NCBI GenBank assembly: GCA_028281625.1
Contig: JANQJN010000078.1
Location: 1-64,000 of the forward strand
Origin: Emcibacteraceae bacterium
GTDB lineage: Bacteria; Pseudomonadota; Alphaproteobacteria; Sphingomonadales; Emcibacteraceae
Length of the DNA: 64,000 nt
Direction of reading: 5' to 3'
The position numbers were made by a program, and so were the translations under genes. This document shows, in pieces, positions 3,458 to 38,665 of the stretch (position 1 is its first letter; each line of letters begins with the position of its first letter). Under the pieces are notes generated by a model. It searched no databases and was not told the origin of the DNA. It was given only the letters and a program-made list of their open reading frames with translations.

Positions 3458-4147
3458 TTAATTTTCAGTACTGCCTGTTGTTGCTGTTTCAACCACCACA
3501 GTTCGGCTGCGGTAACGTTCAACAGCACCTGCTGAACGCTCTGCATCTGCGGGTGCACCGTCAGCGCCAACAATCAGATCCCTTGGGCTCGCGACCATGA
3601 GACCAAGATTGGCCTGATTTGCGCATCCTAAATTGCTAATCGGTGCGTTTTCATAGTTTGGATATGATCTTTGTGACCAATCGCCGCATTCAGGTGTCGT
3701 TACCACATATTTGGAAATAAGCAGACGTCCGGTGCCAGCTGTTGGTTCCATACCATATGGCGTTATGGTTGCGGAAAGATATAAACCACTATCTTTAAGC
3801 AGGTTAGACATATAGGTTAGACGTTTTTGGTCCAGCTCGGATAGATTTCCACTACGATCAAGTGGGAAGTCCATGCTGAATTCATCGCCATAAGAAACAT
3901 CGGCTGCGCTCAGGAAATTATTCAGTTTCAGAATTTCCCGCCCCTCAAGTTCAATCTGATTAGCGGGAAATTGAATGCTGTAAGGGATGCGCACCATTTC
4001 AACCTGATTGCGGTTTTGTTGCTCCACACCGGTGTATTGGCTCATGTTTCCTGCGCAGCCCGCTGTCAGCAGGACACAGGTTGCACCAGCTAAAACTGAT
4101 CTAATAATGGTAGGAGTAGAAAATATATTTGTTGTTTTATGTGTCAT
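3458..4147 (-). CDS. cpaD: CpaD-like pilus assembly lipoprotein
   Basis: Lipobox LLTAGCAG; NLGCANQANLGLMVASPRDLIVGADGAPADAERS typical of CpaD. Confidence 0.93.
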   Translation of the reverse strand: MTHKTTNIFSTPTIIRSVLAGATCVLLTAGCAGNMSQYTGVEQQNRNQVEMVRIPYSIQFPANQIELEGREILKLNNFLSAADVSYGDEFSMDFPLDRSGNLSELDQKRLTYMSNLLKDSGLYLSATITPYGMEPTAGTGRLLISKYVVTTPECGDWSQRSYPNYENAPISNLGCANQANLGLMVASPRDLIVGADGAPADAERSAGAVERYRSRTVVVETATTGSTEN

Positions 4148-4156
4148 TACTCTCTC

Positions 4157-5590
4157 CTATTCCAATATAAAGCCGGCAGCGCCGTTCATCTTTTTACCGT
4201 TCGCGGCCTGGATTGGCTGTGGCACAAGTGGCGGCGTGCTCACATATGACTGACCATCTAGATACCTTTCTTTATCGTTTGGATATCTGAAGTTATCAGT
4301 CGGAAGATGCATTTGATCTTCGTTTGAAGGCTCTACAATATAGGGTGTTACAATTACCACCAGCTCTGATTCCTGACGGGTAAATTCGCTGGAGCGGAAC
4401 AAAGCACCAATTACAGGAATGTCGGCAAGCCAAGGGAATTTCGTAAGGTCATGTACGCCATTATTTTGGATAAGACCGGCAACAGCAAAACTCTGACCTG
4501 AGCCAAGTTCAACTGTTGTTTCCACACGGCGTGTGCTAAGCGCTGGAATGTTAAGCCCTTCAACAGTAATGGCACCAGAAGAGGTAATCTGGCTTACTTC
4601 TGGTCTTAGGTGAATGTTAATGCGGCCGCTGTCAAGCACTACAGGTGTGAAGTTCAATGCTACACCGAACTCTTTATATTGAATTGAAATACCGTCTCTT
4701 TGAAATACTGGGATTGGGTATTCGCCACCAGCAAGGAAGCTTGCGGTTTCACCAGAAAGGGTGGTCAGGTTTGGTTGTGCCAGAACCGAAATCACACCTT
4801 CTTCTTCCATGGCATCCACCAGAAAGTTCACATCCAAGTTTCCGATGGGAATACCGCCGACCAGATTTTTACCGTCCGTAATAAAGTTCCTTTGTGGGAT
4901 GGATGGATCAAAAGGGCTTGGTGTTATATTAAAAAAGTCTTTTCCTTGAGAAATTCCAAGAAATGTTCCGCCAGATGTATTAAGAATACTTTCCCAGTTA
5001 AATCCAAGCTGCTTCATGGTTTCGCGGCCAATTTCAGCAATACGTACACGAAGGTTCACCTGCACGGGTGTCGCGATATTCAGCTTATTGATAATGGTGC
5101 TTTCTTCACCAATAAATTCAGCGGCCATGCGCCGCGCTTCTTCCGCTTGCTCGGGATTATCCACGTGGCCAGTTAAAATGAGCAGGCCTTCATATGATTC
5201 AACGTTGATGCGGGTATCCGGCATTACAGTTTTAATGGCTGCTTCAAAGTGGCCAAGATTGTGGTTTACCGATACTTCACCATCGAAGACAACCTGGTCG
5301 TTTTCCGAAATTGCATATACGCTGGTTTGACCCTGCTTTTTACCAAAAACATAAGCAAGTGTAGGTGATTTTACCTGGATGTCCGCGATTGTTGGATCAG
5401 CGACAAATACGTTATTAACGGGCTGTGAAAAGCGAACTAGAGTGCCTTTGCTAACTTCGATCGTTATCAACTCTTTAGCGTTTGCAAAATTACCAAACGA
5501 TAAAGACATAATCATAGCCATTGAAATGGCCATGAAGCCCTTTAGGTACTTCGCAACATTAATCTGAAATGTTTGGTGAAAATGGGTCAT
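4157..5590 (-). CDS. cpaC: CpaC/RcpA type II/IV secretin
   Basis: Secretin motifs (VLAQPNLTTLSGETASFLAGGEYPIPV..., LPWLADIPVIGALFRS). Confidence 0.95.
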   Translation of the reverse strand: MTHFHQTFQINVAKYLKGFMAISMAMIMSLSFGNFANAKELITIEVSKGTLVRFSQPVNNVFVADPTIADIQVKSPTLAYVFGKKQGQTSVYAISENDQVVFDGEVSVNHNLGHFEAAIKTVMPDTRINVESYEGLLILTGHVDNPEQAEEARRMAAEFIGEESTIINKLNIATPVQVNLRVRIAEIGRETMKQLGFNWESILNTSGGTFLGISQGKDFFNITPSPFDPSIPQRNFITDGKNLVGGIPIGNLDVNFLVDAMEEEGVISVLAQPNLTTLSGETASFLAGGEYPIPVFQRDGISIQYKEFGVALNFTPVVLDSGRINIHLRPEVSQITSSGAITVEGLNIPALSTRRVETTVELGSGQSFAVAGLIQNNGVHDLTKFPWLADIPVIGALFRSSEFTRQESELVVIVTPYIVEPSNEDQMHLPTDNFRYPNDKERYLDGQSYVSTPPLVPQPIQAANGKKMNGAAGFILE

Positions 5591-35162: not shown

Positions 35163-36485
35163 ATGAATTCTACTCAAAATCGCTTACGTCGGGACTTCGA
35201 AACTATTTCGATATTGGTTCGAAGTAAGCTTTGGTTACAAATTTTATTGGCAATGTGCTCTGGGTTGTTTATCGGCATATTGCTCTCGGCTGAAGGGGGC
35301 GCCGCAGTTTCATCTGAAACCAGTTTGATAATAGCGTCGTGGTTAAAACTCCCTGGTACAATTTTTTTGAACCTAATTCAAATGGTTGTTATTCCACTTA
35401 TTATGTCGTCGATAATCACTGGAATTAGTTCAAGCGGCAGTACGGACTATTTGAAAAATGTTGGTTTGCGGATATTTCCTTATTTTCTTTGTACGACAAC
35501 AATAGCGGTCACTATTGGCTTAACAATTGCGATGTTGATTAAGCCGGGCAATTATATTGAGGCAGACATTGTCGAAGTGGGTACCTCGTCTATTGAGGCT
35601 AACGTTAACGCGATGGATCAATCAACGGTGCCGGATCGAATTGCCGCGCTGATCCCAGCGAATTTTGCCGAAGCGAATGTAAATCAAAACATGCTACAGG
35701 TTGTCATTTTTTCCATTATTATTGGAGTGGCGATTATGACACTTTCATCTGAACGAAAACGAACACTTCTGTCGATTGCAGATGCTATTCAAGATGTTGC
35801 ACTAAAGGTTGTTAGTTGGGCGATGTTGCTAGCTCCCTTGGCAGTTTTTGGCTTACTAGCAGACATTACGATAAGGGTTGGGTATGAAGCAATAATTGGT
35901 ATGTCCGTTTATGTAGGCACTGTAATTTTAGGTCTTATGCTTCTGCTAGTGGTTTATTTGTTAATCGTGAAATTAGCTACAAATTCAAGTCTCTCGTTGT
36001 TTGTAAAAAGTGTTCGTGACGTTCAACTGTTAGCGTTCTCTACCTCAAGTTCAGCGGCCGTCATGCCACTTTCAATAAAAACCGCTATAGAAAAATTGGG
36101 AGTGAAACCCGCAATATCAAAATTTATTGTGCCTCTTGGAGCAACCATCAATATGGATGGCACGGCTCTGTATCAAGTGGTTGCTGCTTTGTTTCTTACG
36201 CAAGTCTACGGCGTCGATTTAACATCTGGAGAAATTGTTTTGTTGGTTGTTACGACTGTCGGAGCTTCAATTGGTTCTCCAAGTACACCGGGTGTTGGGA
36301 TTGTGATACTGGCCGCAATATTACAAAACATTGGAATTCCTCCCAGTGGAGTTGCTTTGATCATAGGAGTGGATCGAATTTTGGATATGTGTCGCACAAC
36401 TATCAACGTAACCGGTGATTTAACAGCGTGCGTTGTTATGAACAATTGGCTCGAATCGTCAACTCTTGAGGAAAGTAAAGTTTGA
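35163..36485 (+). CDS. Dicarboxylate/amino acid:cation symporter (DAACS family)
   Basis: MVVIPLIMSSIITGISS; FSTSSSAAVMPLSIKTA; VPLGATINMDGTALYQ. Confidence 0.95.
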   Translation: MNSTQNRLRRDFETISILVRSKLWLQILLAMCSGLFIGILLSAEGGAAVSSETSLIIASWLKLPGTIFLNLIQMVVIPLIMSSIITGISSSGSTDYLKNVGLRIFPYFLCTTTIAVTIGLTIAMLIKPGNYIEADIVEVGTSSIEANVNAMDQSTVPDRIAALIPANFAEANVNQNMLQVVIFSIIIGVAIMTLSSERKRTLLSIADAIQDVALKVVSWAMLLAPLAVFGLLADITIRVGYEAIIGMSVYVGTVILGLMLLLVVYLLIVKLATNSSLSLFVKSVRDVQLLAFSTSSSAAVMPLSIKTAIEKLGVKPAISKFIVPLGATINMDGTALYQVVAALFLTQVYGVDLTSGEIVLLVVTTVGASIGSPSTPGVGIVILAAILQNIGIPPSGVALIIGVDRILDMCRTTINVTGDLTACVVMNNWLESSTLEESKV

Positions 36486-36667: not shown

Positions 36668-37798
36668 ATGTCAAGATATGATCCGTTAGTATACAAAGCT
36701 TTGTTCGAAGCTGCTGAAGATCCAATGTGGGTGATAGTGGACAATAAGTTTAGTTTCTGTAATACAGCAGCAGCTAAGTACCTTGGATATACCGATGAAA
36801 CTGAACTGGAGGGTGTCCGACCCACTCAGGTCTCACCAGAATTGCAGCCAGATGGTGAGCTATCCACAGTAAAAGCAGAAAGGTATATTGAGGATACATT
36901 AAGCAATGGATTTCACAAATTCGAATGGACGTTAAAACGAAAAGATGGAAGTGAGATTTCTGTTGAAGCCACACTGACCAAAGTTAAATACCATCACTTG
37001 AAATTTATATTTTGTATTTGGCGAGACATTAGCAAAAGAACGCAGTTAATCACTGATCTCATCGAAGAAAAGAACAAAGCGAACAAGGTCATAGAAGCAA
37101 AAAATTCGTTCGTTTCCAACATGAGCCGTGAATTGCGAACCCCGTTAAATGCAATCATAGGATTTTCTGATCTGTTGTTGTCAGGTGTCGCTGGAGAAAT
37201 AGCATCCCGAAAACAAGAAGATTACATTAAAGATATTAAATCAAGCGGAGAACACCTCGCCAGCCTGGTCAAAGAGATATTAGATTTGTCCGCGATGGAA
37301 AAAAACACGTTTGAATTGACTGAAGGTGAGTTTGATTTTGATACATGCATTAACGACGCAATCTTGTTTGTTGAAGAAGACGCTAATTTAAAAGATATTG
37401 CGATAGACTATGCTGATGGATCACCAATTACTTTCTTTGGTGACCAAATGGCTTTTAAAAGGGCTGTGGTAAATCTACTGACCAATGCTATCAAGTTTAC
37501 TAACACAAATGGTAATATTGAACTCAAAAGAACGATTTCAAACAGTGGGCAATTACTATTTGAAATCATAGACTATGGAACAGGCATTAGCGCCGAGGCC
37601 TTAAAGCGCATATTCAAGCCATTTGAACAAGGTATAGGCAATCACGAACTTCAAGAACTAGGTGTCGGGCTTGGGTTAACAATTGTAAAAAGTGTTATAG
37701 AGCTGCATGGTGGCATAATTGAACTCAATAGTGTTCCTAATGTGGAGACACGTGCTCTAATCACAATGCCTGCTAACAGGATTTCCGTTACAGTCTAG
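36668..37798 (+). CDS. PAS domain histidine-kinase-like protein with His to Arg change at the phosphoacceptor site
   Basis: PAS N-terminus; NMSRELRTPLNAIIGF where MSHELRTPLN is expected; intact N, G1, G2 boxes (NLLTNAIKFT, DYGTGIS, GVGLGLTIVKSV). Confidence 0.9.
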   Translation: MSRYDPLVYKALFEAAEDPMWVIVDNKFSFCNTAAAKYLGYTDETELEGVRPTQVSPELQPDGELSTVKAERYIEDTLSNGFHKFEWTLKRKDGSEISVEATLTKVKYHHLKFIFCIWRDISKRTQLITDLIEEKNKANKVIEAKNSFVSNMSRELRTPLNAIIGFSDLLLSGVAGEIASRKQEDYIKDIKSSGEHLASLVKEILDLSAMEKNTFELTEGEFDFDTCINDAILFVEEDANLKDIAIDYADGSPITFFGDQMAFKRAVVNLLTNAIKFTNTNGNIELKRTISNSGQLLFEIIDYGTGISAEALKRIFKPFEQGIGNHELQELGVGLGLTIVKSVIELHGGIIELNSVPNVETRALITMPANRISVTV

Positions 37799-37930: not shown

Positions 37931-38665
37931 TTAATTGCCACCTTGGTTAAAGTGCTTCGCTTCCTCTCTCAGCGGTGGGACTTGAAAAACCATCTCGTCT
38001 TCGCTCGGTAGCTGCCCAGCACAAGCTTTAATGACATCAGTGCTATCTGTCGGTTTTTCCACATCGGCGATAAAAAATCCAAGTGGTCCATACGCATTTA
38101 CATAAGGAAGGCCATGATTGGCATACTGCGTATCACGATCATATCCAATATCTTCGGGCTTTGTATAAGGTGCTGTATACATGACATGAGCTGCTACCCG
38201 ACCATAACGTCCATCAGGGGCTTGCCGATAATTGTAATTGGAGGCCATATAAGAAACTCCGGTTTTGGTTGGCACCTGATAAATGCCTTCCTCAAACCCT
38301 TCCTTGCGTTCTTCAGCTATCTCAGCAAAAGATTTACCTTCCCGAAGTTTCCGCCCTTCATCCAGGTAAACTGGCAGGTGAGATTTTTGTGTTATTTCAT
38401 CCAAACATTGTGGAGAAAGCCCAATACCGGGGCGCCTAGGAACAATACATATGAAATTATTTTTTTTCTCCTTTACGAGTTCAAACTTTTCTGGCCCCAG
38501 AATATAAACACCCGCACCTTCACGAATGTTTTTTGGTCCTCCAGCCAATGCAAGGGCCGTTTCACATTCAGGCGTCAGCGCAATAAGCTCCTCTTGCGCG
38601 GTGGCGGTTTGGTTTGCGCCCAATAAGCCCAGCGCCATAACTGCTTTTAGGGTAATTTTGCTCAT
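37931..38665 (-). CDS. Hypothetical exported protein
   Basis: Signal peptide MSKITLKAVMALGLLGANQTATAQ; no family recognised. Confidence 0.6.
   Translation of the reverse strand: MSKITLKAVMALGLLGANQTATAQEELIALTPECETALALAGGPKNIREGAGVYILGPEKFELVKEKKNNFICIVPRRPGIGLSPQCLDEITQKSHLPVYLDEGRKLREGKSFAEIAEERKEGFEEGIYQVPTKTGVSYMASNYNYRQAPDGRYGRVAAHVMYTAPYTKPEDIGYDRDTQYANHGLPYVNAYGPLGFFIADVEKPTDSTDVIKACAGQLPSEDEMVFQVPPLREEAKHFNQGGN

What the first reader, a model, noticed from the sequence alone, without database searches (positions are those of the whole stretch)
36668..37798. Histidine kinase lacking its phosphoacceptor histidine
The H-box reads NMSRELRTPLNAIIGF. The His codon is replaced by CGT (37127-37129, residue 154), one transition from CAT. 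The ATP-binding boxes remain intact and the protein is otherwise full length. It cannot autophosphorylate at the canonical site, suggesting a pseudokinase-like regulator, a heterodimer partner phosphorylating another kinase, or recent inactivation. It lies directly after a DAACS symporter with no response regulator beside it.
Basis: partly seen in the sequence, partly recalled or inferred. Interest (0 to 1): 0.62.

Follow-up and report, generated by a model that had tools for sequence, protein, structure and literature searches.

The report
Sensor kinase missing its phosphorylation histidine
One bacterial sensor kinase really has an arginine where virtually all its relatives carry the histidine that receives phosphate, but it is a fast-changing gene found in a single species, so it is either a young non-signalling partner of other kinases or a kinase that is being lost; histidine-less kinases are already known.

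Summary
The 376-aa ORF (36668-37798, +) is a PAS-HisKA-HATPase_c protein whose codon 154 (37127-37129) is CGT, giving NMSRELRTPLNAIIGF. All ATP-binding boxes, Glu155 and Thr158 are kept.

All compared homologues except one have His there; the exception is a DivL-like protein with Tyr. The Arg form of the motif occurs only here among 401 genomes of the order and 289 of the class. No orthologue was found (best full-length match about 41%), so conservation of Arg154 cannot be tested, and a sequencing or strain-level error cannot be excluded.

New findings. The gene is a chimaera: its PAS domain is nearest a small soluble PAS-kinase of the genus (47-52%), while its kinase core belongs to a genus-expanded family of membrane kinases with paired periplasmic solute-binding domains (100/99 support). 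It evolves about twice as fast as that family. It lies among genes without close orthologues in the genus.

Best reading: a species-restricted, cytoplasmic, His-less kinase that cannot phosphorylate itself at the usual site but could still dimerise with paralogues or bind their response regulators. Recent inactivation is almost as likely. This is a new member of a known kind (DivL, RocA). Interest is modest.

The parts
36668..37798 (+). PAS-HisKA-HATPase_c histidine kinase homologue, 376 aa, no His at the phosphoacceptor site
36719..37033 (+). PAS domain (residues 18-122, PAS_9), 47-52% identical to the PAS of small soluble PAS-kinases of the genus
37097..37300 (+). HisKA / DHp domain (residues 144-211)
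37127..37129 (+). CGT = Arg154 in place of the phosphoacceptor His
37130..37141 (+). E155-L-R-T158: kept ExxT residues next to the missing His (Glu for autokinase, Thr for phosphatase in HisKA kinases)
37439..37774 (+). HATPase_c / CA domain (residues 258-369) with intact N, G1, F and G2 boxes
35163..36485 (+). upstream SDF-family (GltP/DctA-like) symporter; 182 bp gap; no orthologue in the genus (best 38%); functional link not shown
37931..38665 (-). downstream convergent gene, no Pfam or NCBIfam match, no match in the 13 other genomes of the genus

Best explanation
A real, species-restricted His-less histidine kinase (pseudo-HK). Its cytoplasmic PAS domain has been joined to a kinase core from the genus's expanded family of solute-binding-domain membrane kinases. 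Shown: Arg at the phosphoacceptor site, intact predicted fold and ATP-binding residues, chimaeric origin (core well supported, PAS side weaker), accelerated change. Inferred: it cannot carry phosphate itself; it dimerises through its DHp helices with itself or with paralogous kinases and/or docks their response regulators, so that the PAS state modulates their phosphorylation (trans-phosphorylation of a partner's His, response-regulator dephosphorylation through the kept ExxT motif, or simple sequestration).
For: Arg154 in the His column. E155, R157, T158 and all invariant CA residues kept. AlphaFold model with mean pLDDT 92, two long DHp helices (122-172, 181-211) and a complete CA fold. The core is inside a 23-row clade of mostly SBP_bac_3 kinases at 100/99; grouping it with the PAS-kinases is rejected, AU p 0.00016, while the PAS is nearest those PAS-kinases. 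The long branch (1.1 changes per site) has kept an open frame and all 15 invariant columns, which argues that most of it was under selection for the fold. Precedents: DivL has Tyr or Ala at this site and works by binding DivK~P (PMC4211667); RocA is a pseudokinase that works through CovS (PMC7028121); a ChrS pseudokinase acts through HrrS, with which ChrS forms heterodimers (PMC9491836).
Against: No orthologue, so no sign that Arg154 is maintained. Elevated change over the whole protein, including conserved positions (A141V, D203E, G213N, G360E), is also what decay gives. No partner kinase or response regulator is identified. No expression data.
Confidence: 0.47

Rival explanations
1. Recent inactivation: a chimaeric kinase of limited use lost its His by one transition (CAT to CGT) and is on the way to becoming a pseudogene; no present function.
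For: Single species, no orthologues, neighbours also without close orthologues in the genus, about twice the family's rate of change and 2.5-3 times in DHp, 8 departures at conserved columns against 0-2 in the nearest cores, one transition from His.
Against: Frame and start intact over 376 codons; all ATP-box residues intact; no second clear lesion.
Confidence: 0.38
2. The CGT is an assembly or sequencing error, or a minority allele in the sampled population; the gene encodes an ordinary PAS histidine kinase.
For: One genome only, 205 contigs, origin unknown; a single base decides; reads not available.
Against: Not a homopolymer or repeat; the rest of the gene is clean; the protein is unusual in other ways (long branch).
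Confidence: 0.11
3. An active kinase that uses another residue near position 154, or another His, as phosphoacceptor.
For: ATP-binding site and Glu155 intact; a further His stands in DHp helix 2 (H196 in SGEHLA).
Against: The SGEHLA His is common to the His-bearing relatives of the core clade, so it is not a replacement; no new His, Asp or Cys stands beside Arg154.
Confidence: 0.04

Closest known systems
DivL (pseudo-histidine kinase, Caulobacter; PMC4211667)
   Same: HisKA-HATPase_c protein with PAS input and a non-His residue at the phosphoacceptor site; Arg at +3 kept (R157 here; R553 in DivL, needed for DivK~P binding)
   Different: DivL carries Tyr (or Ala), has several PAS domains and is conserved; this genome has its own DivL-like protein (L026, Tyr motif in 10 of 14 genus genomes, 74-85% identity). 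The present protein has Arg, one PAS, and no orthologue.
Tandem SBP_bac_3 sensor kinases of the same genus (e.g. L004, L006)
   Same: Source clade of the kinase core; 41-50% identity over DHp and CA; mostly without a neighbouring response regulator
   Different: They are membrane-type sensors with paired periplasmic solute-binding domains and keep His; this protein has a PAS domain and no such sensor.
Small soluble PAS-HisKA-HATPase_c kinase (L002, L064, L066)
   Same: Same architecture and length; nearest PAS domain (47-52%)
   Different: Kinase core only 27-28% identical in CA; His present.
RocA of group A Streptococcus (PMC7028121)
   Same: Sensor-kinase homologue without kinase activity, acting through another kinase
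   Different: Membrane protein with a known partner (CovS); no partner known here.
EnvZ H243A laboratory mutant (PMC5727384)
   Same: Loss of the phosphoacceptor His abolishes kinase function in a HisKA kinase
   Different: Engineered change.

Membership tests
HisKA-type histidine kinase (by homology) | HisKA and HATPase_c domains in order | tested here: met
HisKA-type histidine kinase (by activity) | phosphoacceptor His in the H-box | tested here: not met
   Arg154
HisKA-type histidine kinase (by activity) | intact N, G1, G2 ATP-binding boxes | tested here: met
HisKA-type histidine kinase (by activity) | autophosphorylation | not testable with these tools
   needs purified protein
DivL | orthology to DivL (several PAS domains, Tyr at the site, conserved in relatives) | tested here: not met
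   the DivL-like gene is L026 on another contig; the present core falls in another clade
SBP_bac_3 sensor-kinase clade | kinase core in the clade | tested here: met
   100/99 support
SBP_bac_3 sensor-kinase clade | periplasmic solute-binding domains | tested here: not met
   only PAS N-terminal of HisKA
maintained pseudokinase | His-less state conserved across orthologues | tested here: inconclusive
   no orthologue found

The most novel reading that the evidence does not exclude
A domain-shuffled, cytoplasmic, Arg-bearing pseudo-kinase that uses its intact ATP site to phosphorylate, in heterodimers, the His of the genus's many orphan solute-binding-domain kinases, so that one soluble PAS sensor gates a whole paralogous kinase family.
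Probability: 0.08. Interest if true: 0.65.

Novelty: new member of a known kind. Interest (0 to 1): 0.3.

Why it matters
If the protein is functional, it is a young, naturally arisen pseudo-histidine kinase with traceable parts (PAS from one family, core from another), caught before or just after loss of kinase function, and it sits in a genome full of close paralogues that could be its partners. If it is decaying, it shows how easily a single transition silences a kinase while annotation pipelines would still name it one.

Tried and rejected
Orthologue searches in GTDB r220 contigs, 61 relatives, 401 order genomes, 385 class genomes and plasmids: no full-length match above about 41%, so dN/dS on orthologues could not be done; paralogues at 45% identity are too far apart for it. 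Operon with the symporter: 182 bp gap, promoter- and terminator-like matches no more than chance, undecided. An alternative phosphoacceptor His: H196 is common to the His-bearing relatives, so not a substitute. NCBIfam matches are all far below their cut-offs, so no named subfamily. A literature search for an Arg replacement gave nothing relevant; the library lacks most subscription papers. The structure model was not searched against fold libraries: the fold is not in doubt. An earlier count gave 48 His-form sites; the right number is 40 (corrected in entry 2).

Full report
Observation. The ORF at 36668-37798 (+) encodes 376 aa with PAS_9, HisKA and HATPase_c domains well above Pfam cut-offs. 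Codon 154 (37127-37129) is CGT; the H-box reads NMSRELRTPLNAIIGF. In an alignment of 80 kinase cores the column is His in all but two rows with a residue there: Arg here, Tyr in L026. Of 15 invariant columns in a 55-row alignment the protein keeps all, including N273, K276, D302, G304, G306, F319, G332, G334 and G336; of 19 nearly invariant ones it departs at A141, H154, D203 and G360. Glu155 and Thr158, which in HisKA kinases serve autokinase and phosphatase steps (established knowledge; the CovS E281A and T284A mutants described in PMC7028121), are kept. The AlphaFold model is confident (mean pLDDT 92) and shows a complete PAS, DHp and CA.

Is it more than chance? The Arg form of the motif was found once among 401 genomes of the order and, with a slightly wider pattern, once among 289 genomes of the class; both times it was this gene. 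The genus's 14 genomes hold 40 sites with the His form and none with a codon starting A, G or T in that motif. Read-level errors cannot be tested here.

Conservation. No orthologue was found: best full-length matches are 36-41% in the own genome, 61 relatives and 401 genomes of the order, with none better in 385 genomes of the class or the GTDB r220 scan. As a control for a maintained His-less kinase, the DivL-like protein L026 of the same genome has a Tyr-bearing counterpart in 9 other genomes of the genus at 74-85% identity. The upstream SDF symporter has at best 38% matches in the genus and the downstream gene none, so the gene lies in a stretch without close relatives in the genus.

Origin. 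The PAS domain is 47-52% identical to those of small PAS-kinases L002, L064 and L066 of the same genus, although the PAS tree alone gives weak support (49/63). The kinase core, in contrast, falls in a clade of 23 rows with 100/99 support (repeated); the two full-length members examined carry two SBP_bac_3 domains, HisKA and HATPase_c. Forcing the core together with the PAS-kinases is rejected (AU p 0.00016). The protein is therefore best read as a domain-shuffling product. Most of the SBP_bac_3 kinases in the own genome have no response regulator beside them in the stretches read (one has an OmpR-type regulator about 1.5 kb away), so the missing partner here is not peculiar.

Rate. The end branch is 1.1 changes per site against 0.12-0.55 for its nearer clade mates (0.68 for the outermost, L013). 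Relative-rate counts with nine outgroups give about 33 unique changes against 16 over the core and about 14 against 5 in DHp; single comparisons are mostly near p 0.01-0.1, but the direction is the same for all 21 mates and no other mate shows a comparable excess. The PAS branch is long too (1.25 against 0.02-0.25 in its nearest relatives). Because the frame and all invariant catalytic residues survived this much change, most of the branch was probably under selection for the kinase fold; either the His was lost late, or ATP binding has stayed useful after its loss. This is inference.

Mechanism. Without His the protein cannot take part in canonical phosphotransfer. It may dimerise through DHp with itself or paralogues, trans-phosphorylate a partner, dephosphorylate or sequester a response regulator, or do nothing. 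Known pseudo-kinases show such actions: DivL binds DivK~P and lacks kinase and phosphatase activity (PMC4211667), RocA works through CovS (PMC7028121), a ChrS pseudokinase works through HrrS (PMC9491836). Loss of the His in EnvZ (H243A) abolishes its kinase activity (PMC5727384). The available data do not choose firmly between a young regulator (0.47) and recent inactivation (0.38); an error or minority allele remains possible (0.11).

Verdict. Observation confirmed, interpretation partly supported, kind already known. Interest 0.3.

Noticed in passing
L026 (own genome, contig C103: about 3501-4193): DivL-like protein with Tyr in place of His (MSYELRNPLN); same Tyr motif in 10 of 14 genomes of the genus, 74-85% identity.
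   Followed up: yes
L093, L094, L095, L096 (own-genome contigs C72, C22, C184, C166): Genus-level expansion of sensor kinases with tandem SBP_bac_3 domains, several side by side on C72, mostly without neighbouring response regulators.
   Followed up: partly
window 37931-38665 (-): Protein of 244 aa with no Pfam or NCBIfam match and no match in the genus.
   Followed up: partly
window 35163-36485 (+): SDF-family symporter only 38% identical to its best match in the genus; far below the NCBIfam cut-offs for GltP and DctA.
   Followed up: partly
L091 (G002, contig C59: 9905-11128): A related symporter gene in another genome of the genus has one TAA stop inside the matched stretch.
   Followed up: no
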